Part shown: piece by piece, positions 1,162 through 59,545 of the stretch
How positions within the stretch are numbered: the first letter of the stretch is position 1
Layout of the letters: each line of letters starts with the position of its first letter
Made by a program: the position numbers and the translations under genes
The notes under the pieces: generated by a model
Told to the model about the DNA's origin: nothing
The model's input: only the letters and a program-made list of their open reading frames with translations
The model's database searches: none
Assembly: GCF_024055795.1 (NCBI RefSeq)
Contig: NZ_JAMXMY010000019.1
Coordinates: 124,001 to 188,000, forward strand
DNA: 64,000 nucleotides
Direction of reading: 5' to 3'
Origin: Actinoallomurus purpureus
GTDB taxonomy: Bacteria; Actinomycetota; Actinomycetes; Streptosporangiales; Streptosporangiaceae

Positions 1162-2664
1162 ATGACCCGCGCGCGACATGGATGGACGCTCACTGTGATC
1201 GCGGTCGCCGGGTTCATGACCACGCTGGACAACACGGTCGTGAACGTCGCGCTGCCGTCGATCCAGCGTGACCTGCACATCTCCCTGTCCACGCTGGAAT
1301 GGGTCGCCACCTCGTACATCCTGATCTTCGCCAGTCTGATGCTCGCCGGCGGCCGGATGGCGGACGTGTACGGCCGCAAGAAGATCTTCCTGATCGGCCT
1401 GGCGATCTTCACGGCGGCGTCGGGCCTCGCCGGGCTGGCGCAGACCGCCGAGACGCTCATCGCGGCCCGGGTCGTCCAGGGCGCCGGCGGCGCGCTCGTC
1501 ATCCCGGCCGGGCTGGCGCTCGTCACCGTCGGCCGCACCGAACGGGAGCAGGCGACCGGCACCGTCGTCTGGGTCGGCTCCGCCGCCCTGGCCCTGGCCC
1601 TCGGCCCGCTGACGGGCGGCTACATCGCCCAGCACTGGGCCTGGAACTGGATCTTCCTCATCAACCTCGCGCCCGGCGTCCTCGTCGTCATCCTGGGCCT
1701 CCTCGTGATCCCGGAGTCGCGGGACACCACCGCCGACGGCGTCGACCTGCCCGGCATGCTCGCCTCCGGCACCACGCTGTTCGCCGTCACGTACGCGCTC
1801 AGCGAGGTCTCCGCGCACGGGTGGGGCAGCGCCGTGGTCCTCGGGGCGTTCGCGCTGGCCGCCGTGGGGCTCGTGGCGCTGATCACGGTCGAGCGGTGGG
1901 CGAGCACACCGATGATCGACCTGGTGTTCTTCCGCAGCCGGGCGTTCGCGGGCGGGGTCGCGGTGCAGATCCTGTGGGGCGTCGGCTTCAACGGCGTGCT
2001 GTTCTACGCCTCGCTGTTCCTGCAGCAGGTGCTGCGGTTCTCCCCGACCAGGACCGGCTCGGTGTTCCTGCCGCCGGCCGTGGTCATCGCCGTCCTGACC
2101 CCCGTGTCGTTCTGGGTGGGCAAGAAGATCGGCGCCCGGTCCACGATCGCCTGGGGCCTGGTGCTCATGGCCGCCGGGATGACGGCCTTCGCGCTGCTGC
2201 GCCCCGGTGACGGCTACGTCGACCTGCTGCCCGGCGTCGCGCTCATCGGCGTGGGCTCGGCGCTGAACATGCCGCTGACCGCGTACGTCCTGGGCTCCGT
2301 TCCCGACGAGCGATCCGGCGTCGCGGGCGGGATCCTCAGCGTCGCGCGGGAGGTCTCCGGGGCCTTCGGCATCGCCGTCATCGGCCTGATCATCGCCGCC
2401 CGACAGAGGTCCGAGGTGGCCTCCGGGGTGCGCCACGCCGCCGCGTTCGAACACGCCACCTCGATCGGGCTGCTGTGCGGCGCCGGTCTGGTCTGCCTCG
2501 GCGCGCTGATCGCCGTCGTCTCGTTGCCGGCCCGCAAACGCCGGGCGCGGCACGCCCTGCCCTACAGCCCCGCCCGGGGCGAGGCCGCCGACCACCCCGC
2601 CGTGCGGCCCGAGGACCGCCCGCCCCTCCTGACCTGGTCACCCCCTGCCGAGAGCACCCGGTGA
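1162..2664 (+). CDS. MFS drug:H+ antiporter, DHA2 (14-TM) family exporter
   Basis: The 500-residue protein is a 14-helix major facilitator of the EmrB/QacA (DHA2) type. Recognisable features are the N-terminal TLDNTVVNVALPSI motif (motif D1) at about 20-35, the loop 2-3 motif GGRMADVYGRKK at about 63-74, and a motif C-like stretch in TM5. The C-terminus is cytosolic and rich in basic, Pro and Ala residues. It is the first gene of the operon and overlaps the glycosyltransferase start by 4 bp (GTGA), so the two are translationally coupled. Proteins of this family export amphipathic drugs, so self-resistance or product export is likely; the substrate itself is not visible from sequence. Confidence 0.93.
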   Translation: MTRARHGWTLTVIAVAGFMTTLDNTVVNVALPSIQRDLHISLSTLEWVATSYILIFASLMLAGGRMADVYGRKKIFLIGLAIFTAASGLAGLAQTAETLIAARVVQGAGGALVIPAGLALVTVGRTEREQATGTVVWVGSAALALALGPLTGGYIAQHWAWNWIFLINLAPGVLVVILGLLVIPESRDTTADGVDLPGMLASGTTLFAVTYALSEVSAHGWGSAVVLGAFALAAVGLVALITVERWASTPMIDLVFFRSRAFAGGVAVQILWGVGFNGVLFYASLFLQQVLRFSPTRTGSVFLPPAVVIAVLTPVSFWVGKKIGARSTIAWGLVLMAAGMTAFALLRPGDGYVDLLPGVALIGVGSALNMPLTAYVLGSVPDERSGVAGGILSVAREVSGAFGIAVIGLIIAARQRSEVASGVRHAAAFEHATSIGLLCGAGLVCLGALIAVVSLPARKRRARHALPYSPARGEAADHPAVRPEDRPPLLTWSPPAESTR

Positions 2665-3911
2665 CCGCGGTGGCGCGCACCATCGTCATCATGGCGGCCG
2701 GCTCACGCGGCGACATCCAGCCCTGCGTCGCGCTCGGCCGGGGACTGGCCGCGCGCGGAAACGGCGTACGCCTGATCGTCGCCGCCGGCCACGAGCCGCT
2801 CGCCGCCGGGCTGGACACCGCCGTCCTGTCCGTCGACCCGGCCCGGCTCCTGGAGACCGACGAGGTCCGCGAGTGGCTGCTGAACGGCCGCGACCCCGTG
2901 CGCTTCATCTCGGGGTTCAAACGGCTGATCCGGCCCATGGCCGAGATGCTGCTCGAGGAGGTCCTGTCCGCCTGCAAGGACGCCGACCTGCTGCTGTTCC
3001 CGACGCTGGGATTCATCGGTCACCACCTCGCCGAGTACCTGGGCGTCGACGAGGCACTGATCCACTTTCAGCCCAGCCACCCGACGAGCGCCTTCCCGCA
3101 CCCGCTCGTGCCCCGGGCGTTCGGGGCCGAACGGCTGAGCTTCCACCTGGTGGACCAGATCGCCTGGCAGCTCGGCCGTCCGATCCTCAACCCCTGGCGC
3201 CGCGACGCGCTCGGCCTGCCCGGGCTCTCCCTGCGCGGCCCGATGCGCGGCGTCCGGGACGTCCCGGTGCTGGCCTGCTTCAGCGAGGCCGTCGTGCCGC
3301 GCCCGCCGGACTGGCCTGGGCACGTCCACACCACCGGCTACTGGTTCCTCGACGAGCCCGCCTGGACGCCCGGCCCACGGCTCGCGGACTTCCTCGCCTC
3401 CGGTCCGCCCCCGGTGTACGTCGGGTTCGGCAGCATGAAGCCCCGCGACCCGGAGGCGACGTTCCGGATGGTACGGGCGGCGCTGCGCGGCGCGGGCGTG
3501 CGCGGGATCGTCGCCCTCGGGGAGGGCCAAGAGGCCGACGACGACCTCTTCGTGGTCGGGGACGTGCCGCACTCGTGGCTGTTCCCCCGGACGCTCGCGG
3601 CCGTCCACCACGGCGGCGCGGGCACCACCGCCGCCGCGCTGCGCGCCGGGATCCCCGCCGTCGTCTGCCCGTTCTTCGGCGACCAGCCGTTCTGGGGCGC
3701 ACGGGTGGCGGCGATCGGCGCCGGCCCGCCCCCGCTGCCGATCAAGCGACTGGGGCCGGGGGCTCTCGCCGAACGGATCACCAGGACCGTACGCGACGAG
3801 GCGATGCGTCACAGGGCGGCGCGGATCGGCCGCCGGATCGCGGCGGAGGACGGCGTCGGCCGCGCCTGCGCCGCGCTGGAGGCGGCCCGAAAGGGGCGGG
3901 GGCGGCCATGA
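2661..3911 (+). CDS. GT1-family glycosyltransferase (GtfB/UGT-like)
   Basis: A 416-residue GT-B glycosyltransferase. The N-terminal Rossmann half starts with the MAAGSRGDIQPCVALG glycine-rich motif. The C-terminal nucleotide-sugar half has HHGGAGTTAAALRAGIP followed by PFFGDQPFWG, the signature of the GT1 group that includes vancomycin GtfB, sterol glucosyltransferases and the mycobacterial glycopeptidolipid enzymes. The GTG at 2661 overlaps the MFS stop; upstream in-frame starts would lie inside the MFS gene. No deoxysugar biosynthesis genes occur nearby, so a common NDP-sugar donor is likely (inference). It suggests that the lipopeptide, or its lipid part, is glycosylated. Confidence 0.92.
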   Translation: MTAVARTIVIMAAGSRGDIQPCVALGRGLAARGNGVRLIVAAGHEPLAAGLDTAVLSVDPARLLETDEVREWLLNGRDPVRFISGFKRLIRPMAEMLLEEVLSACKDADLLLFPTLGFIGHHLAEYLGVDEALIHFQPSHPTSAFPHPLVPRAFGAERLSFHLVDQIAWQLGRPILNPWRRDALGLPGLSLRGPMRGVRDVPVLACFSEAVVPRPPDWPGHVHTTGYWFLDEPAWTPGPRLADFLASGPPPVYVGFGSMKPRDPEATFRMVRAALRGAGVRGIVALGEGQEADDDLFVVGDVPHSWLFPRTLAAVHHGGAGTTAAALRAGIPAVVCPFFGDQPFWGARVAAIGAGPPPLPIKRLGPGALAERITRTVRDEAMRHRAARIGRRIAAEDGVGRACAALEAARKGRGRP

Positions 3912-3936: not shown

Positions 3937-5697
3937 ATGACGAGCTTCGTGCACCACCTGCGCGCCCAGGTCGCGCGATTCGGAGACGACCGCTGGTACG
4001 CGCTGGCCGACGACCGCGACGGCGAGCTCGTCGAGCTGGAGCGGGCGACGTTCGCGGACCTGGACCGGCGCGCGCGGTCGGCGGGCGCCTGGCTCGCCCG
4101 CCAGGGGATGGCCGAGGAGGCGGCCCTGCTGCTCTACCCGGCAGGGTTGGAGTTCCTCCGCGTGTTCCTCGGCTGCCTGTACTCCCAGGTCATCGCGGTG
4201 CCGTCCCCGTTGCCGTCGACCGATCCACGCGCGCTGGAACGCGCGGAGGGCATCATCAAGGACGCCGACATCCGGATGGTGCTCACGGACGCGGCGAACG
4301 CGCCGCTGCTCACCTCGTGGCTGCGCGAGAGCGGACTGGACGGCCGGGTCGCGTGCGTGGCCACCGACATCACCGCGCTCCCCGACCCCGCCACGTGGGA
4401 GATGCCCGACCTGGGGCCGGACACGCCCGCGTACCTGCAGTACACCTCCGGCTCCACCAGCGAGCCGCGCGGCGTGCTGCTCTCCCACGGCAACCTGCTG
4501 CACAACTCGGCGCAGATCTACACGGTCCTCGGGCGTCCCGAGGAGGGGATCGGCGCGGGCTGGCTGCCGCACTACCACGACATGGGGCTGATCGGCCTGC
4601 TGCTCCAGCCGCTGTACGCGGGCGGCAGCCTGGTCTTCTCCTCACCCGTGTCGTTCGTGATGAAGCCGGTGCTGTGGCCGCGGATGATCAGCCGATACCG
4701 GGCCGGGTACACCGTCGCGCCGAACTTCGCCTACGAGTGGCTGGTGCGCGGGGTCAAGGACGACCAGCTCGCCGACCTGGACCTGTCCTCGCTCGCGTGG
4801 GCCCTCAACGGCGCCGAGCCGGTCCGCACCGCGACGCTGGAGAAGGTCGTACGGCGGTTCGGCCCCGTGGGGTTCCGCCGCGAGGCCTGGGCGCCGGGCT
4901 ACGGCATGGCCGAGGCGACGCTCCTCGTCACCGGCACCGAGCGCGGCCACGGCCCGGTCGTCGGCCGGTTCGACGCCGCCGCCCTGGAACAGGGCCGCGC
5001 CGAGCCGTCGGCGCCGGGAGGTCGGTCGGGGCCGGTTGGTCGGGAAGGAAACAGCGTGGAGCTGGTCGCCTGCGGCCGGCCGATCGACCTAACCGTACGG
5101 ATCGTCCGCCCGGAGTCGGCCGAGCCGCTGCCGGACGGCCGGATCGGCGAGATCTGGGTCGCCGGCGGCAGCGTCGCCCTCGGGTACTGGCAGCGCGCCG
5201 AGCCGAGCGAGGAGACCTTCCGGGCGCGCCTGTCCACCGGGGAGGGGCCGTTCCTGCGCACCGGCGACCTCGGCTTCCTGCGTGACAGCGAGCTGTACGT
5301 CACCGGCCGGCTCAAGGATCTGATCATCGTCAACGGCCGGAACATCTATCCACAGGATGTGGAGGAGGCGAGCCGGGGCGTCCACCCCGCGGCCCGCGCC
5401 GCCGCCGCGTTCGGCGTGGAGAGCGGGCGCGAGCACGTCGTGCTCGTCCAGGAGGTACGCCCCAAGGACCTGGGCGACCTCACGTACGAAGGCCTCGCCA
5501 GGAAGATCAAGGGTGAGCTGGCGCGGGCGTTCGGCCTGCCCTCGATGAACGTCGTCCTCGTCCAGCGGGGCGGCGTCGGCAAGACCACCAGCGGCAAGAT
5601 CCAGCGCCGGCGGATGCGTGCGGCGTTCCTGGCGGGCGAGATCAGTCCCTTGCACGCCGAGCTCGAACCCGAGCTCCGAGCCCTCACCGGCGGATAG
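3937..5697 (+). CDS. Fatty acyl-AMP ligase (FAAL)
   Basis: A 586-residue adenylate-forming enzyme that activates a free fatty acid as acyl-AMP and passes it to an ACP rather than to CoA. Visible motifs are YLQYTSGSTSEPRGV (A3) at about residue 167, GWLPHYHDMGLIG, the NGAEPVR segment, GYGMAEATL, RTGDLGFL, and NGRNIYPQDVEE. The C-terminal TSGKIQR carries the catalytic lysine. The PHYHDMGL and YPQDVE forms are typical of FAALs rather than acyl-CoA ligases. It lies directly before a free-standing ACP gene and an NRPS that opens with a condensation domain, the standard lipoinitiation arrangement (as in daptomycin and ramoplanin clusters). Confidence 0.93.
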   Translation: MTSFVHHLRAQVARFGDDRWYALADDRDGELVELERATFADLDRRARSAGAWLARQGMAEEAALLLYPAGLEFLRVFLGCLYSQVIAVPSPLPSTDPRALERAEGIIKDADIRMVLTDAANAPLLTSWLRESGLDGRVACVATDITALPDPATWEMPDLGPDTPAYLQYTSGSTSEPRGVLLSHGNLLHNSAQIYTVLGRPEEGIGAGWLPHYHDMGLIGLLLQPLYAGGSLVFSSPVSFVMKPVLWPRMISRYRAGYTVAPNFAYEWLVRGVKDDQLADLDLSSLAWALNGAEPVRTATLEKVVRRFGPVGFRREAWAPGYGMAEATLLVTGTERGHGPVVGRFDAAALEQGRAEPSAPGGRSGPVGREGNSVELVACGRPIDLTVRIVRPESAEPLPDGRIGEIWVAGGSVALGYWQRAEPSEETFRARLSTGEGPFLRTGDLGFLRDSELYVTGRLKDLIIVNGRNIYPQDVEEASRGVHPAARAAAAFGVESGREHVVLVQEVRPKDLGDLTYEGLARKIKGELARAFGLPSMNVVLVQRGGVGKTTSGKIQRRRMRAAFLAGEISPLHAELEPELRALTGG

Positions 5698-6020: not shown

Positions 6021-27582
<21,562 letters not shown>

Positions 27583-27586
<4 letters not shown>

Positions 27587-29634
27587 ACACCCGACGCGGG
27601 CGGCTGGAGGACATCCTGCCGCTGTCCCCCCTCCAGCAGGGGCTGTACTTCCACGCCGCGCTGGACGACCGGGACCTGTACGCGACGCAGCTGGTGCTCG
27701 ACCTGACGGGCTCCCTGGACGTCGCGGCGCTGAAACGGGCCGCGTCGGCGCTGCTGGCCCGGCACGCGAACCTGCGGTGCGGCTTCCGGCAGCGCAAGAA
27801 CGGCGAGCCGGTCCAGCTCGTGCACCGGGAGGTCGCCCTGCCGTGGGAGGAGACCGCCGGTGACCCCGACGCCATCGCCGAGCGGGAACGGACCCGCCCG
27901 TTCGACCTGACCCGGCCGCCGCTGCTCCGGTTCACGCTCGTCCCCGAAGGACCGGACCGGCACCGGCTCATCGTCACCGGCCACCACATCCTCCTGGACG
28001 GCTGGTCGATGCCGGTCCTGGCGGAGGAGTTCTTCACCCTCTGTCTCGGCGGCGAGCCCGCCCCCGTCACTCCGTACAAGCGGTACCTGGAATGGCTCGC
28101 CGCGCGGGACCGCACGGCGGCGCGCGAGGCGTGGGCGAAGGCCCTGGACGGGGTGGAGGAGCCCACGATGGTCGCCCCGGCGACCCTGACCGGGCCACCG
28201 CAGCCGCCGCGGCGGGTCACCACGGAGGTCTCCCTGGACCTGGCCGCCGTCCGGCGGCACGGACTGACGGCGAACACGCTCGTCCAGGGCGCGTGGGGAC
28301 TGCTGCTGTCCCGGCTGACCGGCCGCGACGACGTCGTCTTCGGGGCGGCGGTGTCGGGCCGTCCGCCGGAGATCCCCGGCGTGGAGCGGATGGTCGGGCT
28401 GTTCATCAACACCGTCCCGGTGCGAGTGCGGATCGACGAGGAGCTGTCCGTCGCCGCCCTGCTGATGCGCCTGCAGGACGAGCAGGCCGAGCTGTTCCCG
28501 CACCAGCACGCCGGGCTGACCGAGATCAGCCGGACGCCGCTGTTCGACACGATGACCGCGTTCGAGAACTATCCACAGCCTGGGGACATCGCGCTCGGCG
28601 ACGTACGGCTGACGCGCGTGGATCTGTTCGACGCGACGCACTACCCGCTGGCCCTGGTCGCCGCTCCGCGGGGCGGCGACCGGCTGTGGCTGCGGCTCGA
28701 CCACCGGCCGGACGCCTACGACGACGCGGAGGCGGAGCTGCTCCTGTCCCGCGTCGAGCGGCTGATGCGCACCATGGCCGCGCGGCCGGACACCCCCGTC
28801 GCGGACCTGGACGTCCTGCTGCCGGGCGAGCGCGACCGGATCCTGGGCGACTGGGCGGCGGGCCTGCCCGCCGCACCGCCCCGCACCCTGCCGGAGCTGG
28901 TCGGCGCGTGGGCCGAGCGCACCCCCGACGCCCTCGCCGTCACGGACCTGCCGTCCTCGGGACCGGTCGAGGCCACCGCCACGACGTCCCCGGCACCACC
29001 CAGCCCCGAGCACGGCACCCCGCCGCCCCTCAAGCCGGTCGGGGCCGGAACCCGAGGCGCCCACGCCGCTACGACGCCTCCGCCTCCAGAACCGGTCGAG
29101 GGCACCGCCTCGACGCTCCCGACACCACCGAGCCCCGAGCCGATCGCGGCCGAGACCCGGAACACGCGTGGCACCCCGCCGTCCCGTGAGCCGGTCGCGG
29201 CGGGGAGCCGCGACGCCCTCGATGTCCCGCTGTCGCCGGAGACGGTCGCGGCGGGGAGCCGAGACGCCCCTGACACCCCGGCCGCCACGACGCTTCCGTT
29301 CCCGGGTCCGGTCGAGGGCACCGCCGGGAGGTCCCGGGGGCTCACCTATGCGGAGTTGTGGACGCGGGCCGGGGAACTCGCCGGCGAGCTGACCCGGCTG
29401 GGCGTCGGGCCGGAGACGATCGTGGCGATCGCCCTGCCCCGATCCGTGGAGTTCCTCGTCTCCGCCCTGGCCGTGAGCCGGGCGGGCGGCGCGTACCTGC
29501 CCATCGACCCCGGCTATCCCCCGGACCGGATCGCGTACATGCTCGACGACGCGCGGCCCGCCTGCGTGATCGCCCAGGTCGGCGCCCCGCTCCCGTACGA
29601 CGGCCCGCGCCTGCCCCCACCCTCGTTGACCTAG
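27583..29634 (+). CDS. NRPS subunit 3, N-terminal part: C domain plus N-terminal third of A7, ended by an in-frame TAG
   Basis: The GTG at 27583 overlaps the subunit 2 stop (GTGA) and follows a GGAGG site. The condensation domain spans residues ~1-430 ([21 protein letters not shown] at ~134) and should accept the D-residue of module 6. The A domain starts normally but carries a Pro/Ser/Thr-rich insert at ~458-585 before the LTYAEL (A1) motif. It then runs through the A2 region to a TAG at 29632-29634. The next open segment (29674-31854) is in exactly the same phase and resumes at the A3 motif. A single base change would give one 1423-residue C-A-T-TE protein. Possible explanations are a nonsense mutation, a sequence error, readthrough, or a genuinely split A domain. 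Confidence 0.8.
28961..29338 (+). repeat. Degenerate repeats encoding a Pro/Ser/Thr-rich insert in A7
   Basis: About 375 bp insert between the start of A7 and its LTYAEL motif. Phrases such as CCGGTCGAGGGCACCGCC and GGTCGCGGCGGGGAGCCG recur several times with spacing near 45-65 bp. The protein repeats read PVEGTA, PSPEP and VAAGSRDA. None of the other six A domains has this insert. Confidence 0.7.
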
Positions 29635-29671
29635 GGAGCGGCCGCGAATGGGCGATACGCCCAAGGTCAAC
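29625..29671. repeat. Palindromic repeat, copy 2 (47 bp, internally deleted), carries the TAG in NRPS subunit 3
   Basis: The ends are GTTGACCTAGGGAG and CGCCCAAGGTCAAC. It is 15 bp shorter than the other copies, so the reading phase matches copy 1. The in-frame TAG at 29632 corresponds to TCG in copy 1 and TTG in the consensus of copies 3 and 4. Its right end supplies an AAGG 7 nt before a GTG at 29674. Confidence 0.8.
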
Positions 29672-29673
29672 GG

Positions 29674-31854
29674 GTGCGGGCGGAGAACGCGGCGTACGTC
29701 ATCTACACCTCGGGGTCGACCGGGCGGCCGAAGGGCGTCGTCGTCACGCACGCGGGCCTGGCGAGCCTCGCCGCGACCGAGATCGAGGGGTTCGGCATCG
29801 CCCCGGGCGACCGGACGCTGCACTTCTCCTCGCCGAGCTTTGACGCGTCGGTGTTCGAGCTGCTGATGGGGCTCGCCTCGGGCGGGACGGTGACGATCGT
29901 GCCCCCGGACGTGTACGGCGGCGAGCCGCTCAGGGACGCGCTGCGCCAGGTGACGCACGGCTTCGTCTCCCCGGCCGTACTGGCGGGCGTGGACCCGGAC
30001 AGCCTGACGAACCCGCGCACCCTCGTCGTCGGCGGCGAGGCGTGCCCGCCCGGCCTCGTCGAACGCTGGGCGCCCGGCCGCCGGATGATCAACGCGTACG
30101 GGCCGACGGAGACGACCGTCGCGGCGACGATGAGCGCGCCGCTGACTCGCGACGCGTCGACGATCGGCGGGCCGATCACGGGCGCGCGGGTGTACGTGCT
30201 GGACGGCCGGTTGCGACCGGTGCCCCCGGGTGTGCCCGGTGAGCTGTACGTCGCGGGGATCGGCCTGGCGCGCGGCTACCTGAATCGCCCCGCCCTGACC
30301 GCCGAGCGGTTCGTGGCCGACCCCTTCGCGCCGGGCCGCATGTACCGGACCGGGGACCTCGTCCGCCGCCGGGCCGACGGCCGCCTGGAGTACCTCGGCC
30401 GCACGGATGCGCAGGTCAAGGTCCGCGGTTTCCGGATCGAGCCGGGTGAGATCGAGGCGGTGCTCGCCGGGTACGAGGGCGTTGCGCACGCCGCCGTCGT
30501 CGTCCGCGAAGACCGCGCGGGCGACCGGCGGCTCGTCGCGTACGTCACCGGCGACGCCGACCCGGCCGAGCTGCGGCGGGCGGCCGCGCGCGCCCTCCCC
30601 GGCCACATGGTGCCGTCCGCCGTCGTCGTCCTGGACGCCCTCCCGCTCAGCCCGAGCGGCAAGCTCGACCGCGCGGCGCTGCCCGCGCCGGAGCTCTCGT
30701 CGGTCTCCCGGCCGCCGCTCGGGCCGCTGGAGGAGATCCTGTGCGGCCTGTTCGCGGACGTCCTGGGCCTCGACCGGGTCGGTGTCGAGGACGGGTTCTT
30801 CGAGCTCGGCGGTGACTCCCTGCTCGCGACCCGCCTGACCGGCCGGATCCGCACCGAGTTGGGGGTCGCCACGCCGGTCCGCACGCTGTTCGAGGCACCG
30901 ACGGTCGCCGCGCTGGCCCGGCGGCTCGCCGCGGCGAACTCCGGCGGTACGACGGGCTCCAGCGATGTGCCGGGCTCCAGCGGCGCGGCGGACGCCGACG
31001 GTGCGACCGGCTCCAGCAGCGCGGCCGGCTCCGGCAGCGCGGTGGACGCCGGTGGCGCGGTGGACCCAAGCGGGGCGGTGGGCTCCGGTGGGGCGGTGGG
31101 CTCCGGTGGGATGGCACCGCTCGACGTGCTGCTGCCGCTGCGCAGACGGGGTGACCGGCCGCCGCTGTTCTGCGTGCATCCCGCGGTCGGGGTCGCGTGG
31201 TCGTACGCGGGCCTGCTCCCGCACCTGCCGGACCGGCCCGTGTACGGCCTGCAGGCGCGCGGCATCGCCCGCGACGAGGAGCTGCCCGGGTCGATGGAGG
31301 AGATGGCCGCCGACTACGTCGCCCTGATCCGCACGGTCCAGCCGACCGGGCCGTACCACCTGCTGGGCTGGTCGCTCGGCGGCCTGATCGCGCACGCCAT
31401 GGCCGTACGGCTGCGGGCCGAGGGCGAGCGGGTGGCAATGCTCGCGCTCATGGACGCCTATCCCCTCGACGGGGACTCCGGCGCCGACGTCCCCCTCCCC
31501 GACCTGCTCCGCGACCTGGGGTTCGACGTGTCCGACGACGTCACGACCGACGACGTCGCCGCCCTCCTGGAGGGCAGCGCCCTCGGCGGGATCGACGGCC
31601 GCCGGCTGGAGGGCATCTACCGCGCCTACCTGAACGCCCTGCGCAACGGGGGGAGGTTCGTCCCCGGGCGGTTCGACGGGGACCTTCTGCTGTTCACCGC
31701 CGCGCGCAATGAGGAGAGACCGCCCGCCGACGTCTGGCGGCCGTACGCCGCCCGGGTCGAGGAGCACACCGTCGACTGCGCGCACACCGAGATAGCCGAT
31801 CCCGGCCCGCTGGCCAGGATCGCCGTGAGATTGAAGGAGAGTCTGGAGCCATGA
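29674..31854 (+). CDS. NRPS subunit 3, C-terminal part: A7 (from motif A3)-T-TE
   Basis: This segment is in phase with the preceding NRPS fragment. It starts at a GTG preceded by AAGG, or by readthrough. It has TSGSTG at ~12, [25 protein letters not shown] and [11 protein letters not shown], so all A motifs from A3 on are intact. Specificity residues read roughly D-A-F-F-V-G-A-V-A, suggesting a hydrophobic residue (low confidence). The carrier serine is Ser382. A ~60-residue Gly/Ser/Ala linker (~422-480) leads to a type I thioesterase with the nucleophile in GWSLGG (Ser567), a candidate Asp in MDAYP and His in the final CAHTE motif. The TE should release the peptide by hydrolysis or macrolactonisation, possibly on Thr1. 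It overlaps the MbtH gene by 4 bp. Confidence 0.82.
30940..31119 (+). repeat. Low-complexity Gly/Ser/Ala linker with short tandem repeats (T-TE linker)
   Basis: Between the carrier protein and thioesterase the DNA holds imperfect GGC/GGT-rich tandem units, including two near-identical 18-bp units around 31075-31112. The encoded linker has almost no bulky residues. Similar flexible linkers occur between T and TE domains, but this one is long. Confidence 0.65.
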
Positions 31855-57821: not shown

Positions 57822-58679
57822 ATGGACGAGCTCACCGTCGCCGTACTCGGAACCGGGATCATGGGCGAGCCGATCGCCCGCAACCTGCTGCGCGCCGGTC
57901 TCGCGGTACGCGTGTGGAACCGCACCCGGGCGAAGGCGGAGCCTCTCGCGGCGGACGGCGCACGCGTGTGCGACGAGCCCGCTGAGGCCGCCGACGGCGC
58001 GAATGTCGTCGTCACGATGCTCCACGACGGCGAGACCGTCGAGAACGTGATGGCCGGCGTGCTCCCGGCCATGGAGGAGGACGCGGTCTGGGCACAGATG
58101 AGCACGGTCGGCGCCGAGGCGGTGGACCGTCTCGCGGAACTGGCCCGCAAGCGCGACGTCACCTTCATCGACTGTCCGGTCCTCGGCACCCGCAAGCCCG
58201 CCGAGGACGGGGCCCTCGTCGTCCTCGCCGCCGGCCCCCACGACGAGCGCGCGGAGCGGGTCTTCGACGTGATCGGTTCCCGGACGGTATGGCTGGGCGA
58301 CGGCACCGAGGCGTCCCGGTTGAAGCTCGTCCTGAACAGCTGGGTCCTCGCGCTGACCACGGCCACCGGTGAGGCGATCGCCCTGGCGGAGGCCTTCGGA
58401 CTGGACCCCCGGCTCTTCCTGGAGACGATCGCGGGCGGAGGTCTCGACTCGCAGTACGCCCAGATGAAGGGCAAGGCGATCATCGCCGGGGAGCTCGCGC
58501 CGAGCTTCAAGACGGTCAGCGCCGCCAAGGACGCCGCCCTGGTCGCCTCGGACGGGCGGTCCGCCGGGGCGGCACCTCGGGTCGCCGAGGCCGTACGCGA
58601 CCAGATGCGCCGTGCCGTCGAGCTCGGCCACGGCGACGAGGACATGGCCGCCGTCTACCACGCCGCCCGCCACCCCTGA
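57822..58679 (+). CDS. NAD(P)-dependent beta-hydroxyacid dehydrogenase
   Basis: A 285-residue dehydrogenase of the 3-hydroxyisobutyrate/tartronate-semialdehyde reductase family. It has the dinucleotide motif AVLGTGIMGEPIARNLL at the N-terminus, NRTRAKAE, the substrate-binding DCPVLGTRKPAEDG, and the catalytic Lys region ASRLKLVLNSWV. The exact hydroxyacid is unknown. The ATG at 57822 follows GGAGA and lies 67 bp after the IclR gene. Confidence 0.9.
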   Translation: MDELTVAVLGTGIMGEPIARNLLRAGLAVRVWNRTRAKAEPLAADGARVCDEPAEAADGANVVVTMLHDGETVENVMAGVLPAMEEDAVWAQMSTVGAEAVDRLAELARKRDVTFIDCPVLGTRKPAEDGALVVLAAGPHDERAERVFDVIGSRTVWLGDGTEASRLKLVLNSWVLALTTATGEAIALAEAFGLDPRLFLETIAGGGLDSQYAQMKGKAIIAGELAPSFKTVSAAKDAALVASDGRSAGAAPRVAEAVRDQMRRAVELGHGDEDMAAVYHAARHP

Positions 58680-58800
58680 CCCCGCCCGCGCCTGACCCCG
58701 CCCGCGTCCGACCCCCCCCGTGTCTGACCCGCCCGCGTCCGACCCGGCGCGCGTCTGACCCGGCGCGCGTCTGACCCGGCGCGCGTCTGACCCGGCTCAA
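58677..58800 (+). repeat. 16-bp tandem repeat starting at the dehydrogenase stop codon
   Basis: About eight head-to-tail units of the form TGACCCGGCGCGCGTC. The last three or four full units are identical; the earlier ones are degenerate (CCGCCCGCG variants). The first unit begins with the TGA stop of the dehydrogenase. There are no spacers, so it is not a CRISPR. The wider gap 58680-59545 holds this array, two palindromic repeats and no convincing gene. Confidence 0.85.
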
Positions 58801-58902
58801 GCCCCGCCGTCGACTCTCAGCCCCCGTGTCCAGCCCCCGCCGCCTCGCGGCACCGGGCACCGCCCGGGAACCGTGAGGCTCGCCGACCCCGCCATCTCCT
58901 GC

Positions 58903-58964
58903 GTTGACTTTGGGAAAAACGCCGTTTCGGCGGTCCACGGAAGGGCGACTTTCCCAAAGTCAAC
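58903..58964. repeat. 62-bp palindromic repeat, copy 3 (intergenic)
   Basis: The ends GTTGACTTTGGGAAA and TTTCCCAAAGTCAAC are exact complements, giving a long hairpin. Length is identical to copies 1 and 4. Confidence 0.88.
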
Positions 58965-59225
58965 GAGAGCGAGGAGCGCCCGGTGGGCGGACGATCCGGA
59001 GATTCGTTACAGTCCGCGCTCGCGCCCCGACTGAGTGCGATCCCCCCGCATCTGCGGAACGGCCCCTTCCGCCGCGCGGAAGCCAATATCACGAAGACCT
59101 CGGACGAGATGATCAATTCGCCGTCGCCGGGTGGATCCATTTGAAGTACGACGCAAAGACACTTTTCCGGCGACCGGAATCGATCATCGACGACGTCCGC
59201 ACCGCCCTCTGGCAGCGCGGCCACC

Positions 59226-59287
59226 GTTGACCTTGGGAAAATCGCCGTTCTGAAGGAGCTTGGATGGGCGATTATCCCAAACTCAAC
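59226..59287. repeat. 62-bp palindromic repeat, copy 4 (intergenic)
   Basis: The ends are GTTGACCTTGGGAAAATCGCC and GGGCGATTATCCCAAACTCAAC, with a few mismatches in the stem. It lies 261 bp after copy 3 and upstream of the diiron-protein gene. Confidence 0.86.
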
Positions 59288-59545
59288 GGAGGGGTGGGGA
59301 AGGCAGGCCCCGGCGGAAGCCGCAGCTCGGCGGCGGGGGCTCGGGGTTGTCTGTGGCGGGCGTACGGGGCGGCGCGGCGGGTGCGCGGGTTCGGGGCGGC
59401 GGGTGCCCGGGGGCCGGACTCGTCGCCGGTGGGCGTACGGGGTGACGGGTGCCCGGGTTCGGGGGGAATGTTCGGCGGACGGCCTTGGCGGGGGCTGCTT
59501 TACGTGCTACGAACAAATGTAAAGCCGATCCCCCAGGAGGCCTCG

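What the first reader, a model, noticed from the sequence alone, without database searches (positions are those of the whole stretch)
29600..29720. Terminal NRPS gene split by an amber codon inside its A domain, within a palindromic repeat
TAG at 29632 ends the first part between core motifs A2 and A3. The rest (A3 to TE) continues in the same phase without further damage. The repeat's right end offers AAGG and, 7 nt later, a GTG start. A complete downstream frame argues against old decay. It could be a recent nonsense mutation that silences the product, a base-call error, amber readthrough, or a two-polypeptide adenylation domain split at the linker. The last would be new.
Basis: partly seen in the sequence, partly recalled or inferred. 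Interest (0 to 1): 0.88.

Follow-up and report, generated by a model that had tools for sequence, protein, structure and literature searches.

The report
Mobile palindrome breaks peptide-synthetase gene
In a soil actinomycete, a short hairpin-forming repeat that is scattered through the genome sits inside the last gene of a peptide-making assembly line and carries a stop codon there, so the assembly line has probably lost its product recently; the repeat itself, which elsewhere can flank a nuclease-like gene, is the more interesting part.

Summary
In detail: an in-frame TAG (29632-29634) lies in a palindrome between the two halves of the last NRPS gene's A domain. The palindrome (29624-29672, 49 bp) is a truncated copy of a dispersed 64-bp element found at 45 or more places in this genome. 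The related Actinoallomurus soli (G001) has the gene continuous, without repeat or stop. A second, full-length copy sits in the same A2-A3 linker of the preceding module, in the same codon phase, without a stop. Both gene pieces show normal purifying selection against G001, and none of the 57 tRNA genes found has a CUA anticodon. Best reading: a mobile palindrome entered a permissive linker and its truncated copy now carries a nonsense codon; product probably lost, recently. A read or assembly error at the hairpin cannot be excluded. A two-polypeptide A domain is unlikely. Unexpected: in G002 and in one other genus, palindrome pairs flank a nuclease-like gene (DUF559/MTES_1575-like). At one locus (window 58902-59288) G002 has the intact unit, this genome a shrunken relic, and G001 neither. 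This suggests a mobile element that I found described nowhere; its movement is inferred, not shown.

The parts
27583..29634 (+). NRPS gene 3, first piece: C domain and A domain up to the A2-A3 linker, ending in TAG
29632..29634 (+). in-frame amber codon, inside the left arm of the palindrome
29624..29672 (.). truncated (49 bp) copy of the dispersed 64-bp palindromic element
   Evidence: model R1 built without it, E 6e-7
29663..29676 (+). AAGG (29663-29666, in the right arm) and GTG (29674-29676): weak reinitiation candidate
   Evidence: background rate
29674..31854 (+). NRPS gene 3, second piece: A3 motif to A domain end, T and TE
24894..24957 (.). full-length 64-bp copy, in frame and without a stop, in the A2-A3 linker of the last A domain of NRPS gene 2; absent from G001
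6021..16940 (+). NRPS gene 1 (three A domains)
16757..27586 (+). NRPS gene 2 (three A domains, by A3 motif)
28945..29337 (+). low-complexity in-frame insert near the A domain's N-terminus, absent from G001; local degenerate repeats
30947..31120 (+). expanded T-TE linker, absent from G001
58902..58965 (.). 64-bp element copy, left end of a relic unit
59031..59230 (+). relic of the gene carried intact by G002: a start-like piece (judged by eye) and its last codons; its stop codon is formed by the right palindrome
   Evidence: (84% over 45 aa at 59084-59218, E 2e-20)
59225..59288 (.). 64-bp element copy, right end of the relic unit

Best explanation
The palindrome is a solo, internally shortened copy of a dispersed 64-bp palindromic element. 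It inserted into the indel-tolerant linker between the A2 and A3 regions of the terminal A domain of a seven-module NRPS. A sister copy sits, in frame and stop-free, in the same linker of the preceding module. The terminal copy is about 15 bp shorter, in one arm, and carries a TAG beside that shortening. Translation should stop there, leaving a C domain with part of an A domain and no A3 region, T or TE, so the assembly line should release no normal product. Shown: identity of the element, the continuous gene in G001, the sister copy, constraint on both pieces, no CUA anticodon among the tRNA genes found. Inferred: insertion by mobility, recency, and loss of product.
For: The genome has 45 loci of the element at E below 0.001 (47 at E up to 0.1), against 5 plus one weak in G002 and none or only weak ones in the other 6 genomes of the genus (loci counted by me from its strand matches). 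Model R1, built without this copy, recovers it. The cluster is syntenic with G001 at 82-89% DNA identity and the G001 gene has no stop and no repeat. Neither NRPS copy is in G001. Both NRPS copies have the same codon phase. dN/dS is normal on both sides of the TAG. 0 of 57 tRNA genes have a CUA anticodon. 0 of 147 other A3 motifs have a stop upstream.
Against: No target-site duplication beyond chance, so insertion is not proven by its footprint. In module 7 about 30 nt of the G001 linker has no clear counterpart, so the ancestral site is unclear. No reads were available to confirm the base. The downstream half is undamaged and has a possible start, so a second product is not excluded. Pairwise dN/dS cannot tell a very recent loss from none. 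Only one close relative in the genus sample holds the cluster (8 genomes).
Confidence: 0.74

Rival explanations
1. Sequencing or assembly artefact: the hairpin was misread, and the shortening and the TAG are errors.
For: Draft assembly in 52 contigs. The shortening and the TAG lie together in one arm of a hairpin. It is the only one of the 47 listed loci that is under 60 bp on its best-scoring strand.
Against: The other listed copies, mostly as palindromic, assembled at 60-65 bp. Arms and flanks read cleanly in frame.
Confidence: 0.13
2. Two-polypeptide A domain: translation stops at TAG and restarts at GTG 29674 behind the element's AAGG; the halves associate and work.
For: AAGG-7 nt-GTG is present. 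The linker tolerates length change: 22 codons of element in module 6, an expanded linker in the second A domain of G001 gene 1. The downstream half is open and constrained. Functional split A domains exist (PMC11342130, passages).
Against: A similar signal follows 373 of 7168 positions. The GTG stands at a native valine codon position. The AAGG lies in the predicted stem. G001 has one continuous gene. The known split separates the small A subdomain, not the core.
Confidence: 0.06
3. Amber readthrough makes the full-length protein.
For: The phase is kept and the downstream frame is open.
Against: No CUA anticodon among 57 tRNA genes found. TAG ends two of eight window ORFs checked. No Rfam family reaches its threshold in the window.
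Confidence: 0.03
4. The palindromes were ancestral in both linkers and were lost from G001; nothing moved recently.
For: Only two genomes of the genus sample hold this cluster, so direction is not polarised by an outgroup. G002 shares the element family and one orthologous site.
Against: The other five genomes of the genus have no or only weak copies, and the family is patchy: 12 of 150 genomes. It still leaves a nonsense codon to explain.
Confidence: 0.1

Closest known systems
Rickettsia palindromic elements (RPE)
   Same: Dispersed palindromes, some inserted in frame in protein genes and translated (PMC10969869, passages).
   Different: RPEs are ~150 bp and nearly half lie in genes by that review; here 64 bp and, by a coding heuristic, 2 of 46 copies lie in a gene frame. 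No sequence comparison was made.
REP sequences and RAYT transposases
   Same: Mostly intergenic palindromes in tens of copies, uneven between species; intragenic REPs are known (PMC3733652, passages).
   Different: REPs are given as 20-40 bp and most carry a GTAG or CGTC tag (abstract start and title); this is 64 bp and starts CGTTGA. Y1 transposase genes occur in 7 of 11 element-bearing and 5 of 11 other genomes.
MITE inactivating microcystin NRPS genes in Anabaena
   Same: A non-autonomous repeat associated with a silenced NRPS cluster (PMC10969869, passages; the original paper was not seen).
   Different: No target-site duplication and no transposase were found here; this copy keeps the phase and stops translation by a nonsense codon.
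Corallorazine split A domain (Crz1/Crz2)
   Same: One A domain encoded in two open reading frames (PMC11342130, passages).
   Different: There the small C-terminal subdomain is separate, near A8-A9, and activity was shown; here the break is inside the core, between A2 and A3, and nothing shows activity.

Membership tests
REP | palindrome of 20-40 bp | tested here: not met
   64 bp; size from the abstract start of PMC3733652
REP | GTAG or CGTC tag (most families) | tested here: not met
   ends CGTTGA / TCAACG
REP / RAYT system | an associated Y1 (RAYT) transposase | tested here: inconclusive
   hits in 7 of 11 element-bearing genomes (none in G002, G065, G095, G123) and 5 of 11 others; adjacency to palindromes not examined
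MITE | inverted repeats, short, many copies | tested here: met
MITE | target-site duplication | tested here: not met
   no excess at 1-8 bp in 37 copies
MITE | a full-length relative that supplies the mobility enzyme | tested here: inconclusive
   nuclease-like gene between palindromes in G002, G317, G195 and beside one in G227; mobility not shown
Rickettsia palindromic elements | in-frame translated insertion in protein genes | tested here: inconclusive
   met at 24894-24957, not at 29624 (stop), rare in the family
functional split A domain | both fragments made and active together | not testable with these tools
   needs proteomics and an adenylation assay
NRPS C-A-T-TE termination module | C, A, T and TE domains in order | tested here: met
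   over the two pieces

The most novel reading that the evidence does not exclude
The 64-bp palindromes are the ends and solo remains of an undescribed actinobacterial mobile element whose own gene is a PD-(D/E)XK-type nuclease (DUF559/MTES_1575-like) rather than a transposase. The gene's stop codon can be formed by the palindrome itself. Solo copies landing in frame in NRPS linkers lengthen or break assembly lines, which makes the element a source of natural-product variation.
Probability: 0.28. Interest if true: 0.68.

Novelty: new variant of a known kind. Interest (0 to 1): 0.5.

Why it matters
It turns an apparent 'split A domain' into a likely history: a dispersed palindrome in the same permissive NRPS linker twice, once harmlessly and once with a stop. 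That warns genome miners that this cluster is probably silent in this strain although nearly all of it is intact, and that the G001 cluster is the better one to study. It also marks the A2-A3 linker as a natural insertion-tolerant site. The palindrome-nuclease-palindrome unit, if confirmed, would link an orphan nuclease-like family to a mobile element.

Tried and rejected
One search gave no match because I wrote one N too many in the pattern; it is not evidence of absence.

Y1/RAYT transposase as the mobilising enzyme: 7 of 11 element-bearing genomes and 5 of 11 others have a hit, so no clear link. Target-site duplication: none beyond chance. Rfam: no match at threshold in the window. Compensatory base changes as proof of a functional RNA: weak within this genome (88.4% of cells paired; covariation score reached by 31 of 500 shuffles, cells changed on both sides by 1 of 500), so I claim only a palindrome.

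Gene conversion between the A domains of modules 6 and 7 as the source of both copies: the two copies differ in loop and length, and the module 6 domain of this genome is no closer to module 7 here (69% DNA identity) than the module 6 domain of G001 is (69%). Independent insertions look likelier; short conversion is not excluded. The low-complexity insert at 28945-29337 as a second dispersed element: its core has its only perfect matches here, and with up to 2 mismatches this genome (30) has no more than G001 (39), G003 (36) or G006 (35).

Solved structures: the module 6 A domain matches known A domains (best linear gramicidin synthase, E 3e-84); its linker with the insert aligns over a similar length, so the insert stays within a natural length range.

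Papers: I looked for a description of this palindrome or of a palindrome-nuclease unit and saw none in their listings; most subscription journals are not held. One search showed no paper on this cluster in its listing. The Ogata RPE paper was not held.

No structure was predicted.

Full report
What was checked. The terminal NRPS gene is open from 27583 to a TAG at 29632-29634, and the same phase is open from there to 31854. Pfam places C and the first part of the AMP-binding domain (profile 16-99) on the first piece, and the rest (161-384) with the C-terminal subdomain, T and TE on the second. The stop lies in an inverted repeat, and AAGG with GTG 7 nt later are present.

The relative. In a search of 41 genomes including the own one, the best foreign match is G001, at 87% DNA identity. 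Window 1-32792 is syntenic with G001 at 82-89% identity. The G001 gene runs continuously through the A domain with no stop and no palindrome. Relative to it the window gene has three extra stretches: about 380 nt of low-complexity sequence near the start of the A domain, the palindrome (net 21 nt longer, in frame), and about 160 nt in the T-TE linker.

The palindrome is a dispersed element. A search of the own genome with the right half of the repeat found two more copies, and a relaxed one found 65 arm matches here against 0-5 in each of 24 other genomes. Nearly all extracted copies are 62 bp between the arm ends, 64 with the flanking C and G. A covariance model built from 33 of them, without the copy of the finding, gave 93 strand matches in this genome, which I count as 45 loci at E below 0.001 and 2 weak ones; only 150 of 13617 first-look candidates were scored, so this is a lower bound. 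Of the other seven genomes of the genus, G002 has 5 clear loci and 1 weak, G001, G004 and G005 have weak matches only (E 0.002 or worse), and G003, G006 and G007 none. The model finds the copy of the finding in the window at E = 6e-7 and three full copies at E below 1e-16. In wider samples the element is patchy: 12 of 150 genomes of the family, 6 of 68 genera, at E up to 1e-4, and 11 of 296 of the class, 6 of 115 genera, at E up to 1e-6; both samples include this genome. Of 12 copies from other genera, 11 have 24-32 of 32 positions paired and one, off register, has 7; 37 copies of this genome have 19-29.

A sister copy in the same linker. Window 24894-24957 is a full copy inside the last A domain of NRPS gene 2, in the same linker before the A3 motif, read as sense codons. 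G001 lacks it. Both NRPS copies start at the same codon position. In that phase 22 of 37 copies are free of stops; in the other two phases 3 and 36 are (9 of the 46 copies were left out as duplicates, length variants or poor matches, the 49-bp copy among them). By a codon-usage heuristic, 2 of 46 copies have the same coding frame on both sides with positive scores, these two. Three more (L067, L112, L115) score positive on both sides on one strand in different phases; L067 proved to lie between two genes, the other two were not resolved. The rest look intergenic. The A2-A3 linker varies in length among the A domains of both species, and with its insert the module 6 linker still aligns with solved A domains over a similar length.

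Is the gene decaying? dN/dS against G001 is 0.18-0.31 over 16 pieces of genes 1 and 2, and 0.17 (C), 0.32 (A1-A2), 0.18 (A3-A10), 0.30 (T) and 0.31 (TE) for gene 3. There is no sign of long relaxed selection on either side of the TAG. A very recent loss would look the same as none.

Readthrough and reinitiation. All 57 tRNA matches of the genome (97.9% complete) were read with ARAGORN and none has anticodon CUA. Two of eight window ORFs checked end in TAG. An in-frame start with a 4-nt Shine-Dalgarno match within 45 nt follows 373 of 7168 positions in genes 1 and 2 (5.2%), so the AAGG-GTG pair is only mildly unusual. The RNA of the repeat folds with z = -3.1 and the AAGG lies in the stem. In the 78 related loci kept by a capped search, one of them G001, 0 of 147 A3 motifs have a stop within 80 codons upstream (some loci overlap).

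Mechanism. I read this as insertion of a mobile palindrome into a linker that tolerates extra residues. In module 6 the full element is translated as 22 extra codons. In module 7 the element is shortened in one arm by about 15 bp, a multiple of three, and carries TAG next to the shortening. Near-perfect palindromes are known to be unstable in replication (recalled), which would account for the damage. The result is a truncated C-A protein and, in all likelihood, no mature peptide. Insertion, order of events and loss of product are inferred.

The larger unit. Palindrome pairs about 1 kb apart occur in G002 (same genus) and in G317 and G195, two genomes of one other genus. Between each pair lies a gene for a protein of 280-300 aa; the G317 and G195 proteins are 41-42% identical to the G002 one. 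Those two reach the Pfam cut-off for DUF559 (24.4 and 20.7 bits against 20.6) but not the one for REase_MTES_1575 (35.5 and 30.3 against 38.2); the G002 protein has only a weak MTES_1575 match (16.5 bits). 'Nuclease' is thus a family-level inference. A further relative, apparently broken, lies beside a palindrome in G227, of the same genus as G317 and G195. The two queries hit 0 of 158 control loci (1.16 Mb, mainly NRPS and tRNA loci, some overlapping), and loci of 4 of 16 other element-bearing genomes examined, that is 2 of 8 genera, plus the window (genomes and genera counted by me). Usually one to three copies per genome were examined, and the G195 stretch was fetched because it held a pair, which favours hits. 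In G002 the gene's last codon and stop are the first six bases of the palindrome (CGT TGA); the same holds for the relic in the window. That relic, 58902-59288, has both palindromes, a piece like the gene's start (judged by eye) and its last codons (84% over 45 aa, E 2e-20). It sits between a dehydrogenase-like and an AurF-like gene here. G002 has the intact unit between relatives of the same two genes, and G001 has about 100 bp between their aligned coding stretches and no palindrome. One orthologous site thus shows intact unit, shrunken relic and no element.

Against this reading: no target-site duplication; most copies have no such gene within the stretch examined, and in this genome only the window relic does; the direction of change at the orthologous site is not polarised. 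The palindromes could also be terminators or binding sites that happen to flank such genes.

Comparison with known things. It works like Rickettsia palindromic elements or intragenic REPs where it is translated, and like a MITE that silences an NRPS cluster where it is not (PMC10969869 and PMC3733652, passages). It fails the size and tag tests for REP and the duplication test for a typical MITE; the RAYT test is inconclusive.

Verdict. The finding is a real nonsense codon within a mobile-looking palindrome (or a read error at a hairpin), not a designed split. The element family is the part worth following.

Noticed in passing
window 58671-59458 (element copies 58902-58965 and 59225-59288): Intergenic block absent from G001; holds two palindromes and a shrunken gene whose intact form lies at the same place in G002 (L120:2001-3077).
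   Followed up: partly
L300 (G317), L301 (G195), L120 (G002), L297 (G227): Palindromes flanking or beside a DUF559/MTES_1575-like gene in two genera; 0 hits in 158 control loci.
   Followed up: partly
window 28945-29337: About 130 residues of degenerate PVEG-type repeats inserted in frame near the start of the terminal A domain, absent from G001.
   Followed up: partly
window 30947-31120: Glycine/serine-rich expansion of the T-TE linker, absent from G001.
   Followed up: no
L269 (G000:C11:252902-253587): Cluster of seven tRNA genes (Ser, Glu, Met, Asp, Val, His, Tyr) in under 800 bp, some low scoring.
   Followed up: no
L273 (G000:C18:71551-71622): Odd, low-scoring tRNA called Cys with anticodon ACA beside two Trp tRNA genes.
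   Followed up: no
window 3937-5697 and 2475-3911: An AMP-binding ligase and an EryCIII-like glycosyltransferase beside the NRPS genes may mean an acylated, perhaps glycosylated peptide.
   Followed up: no
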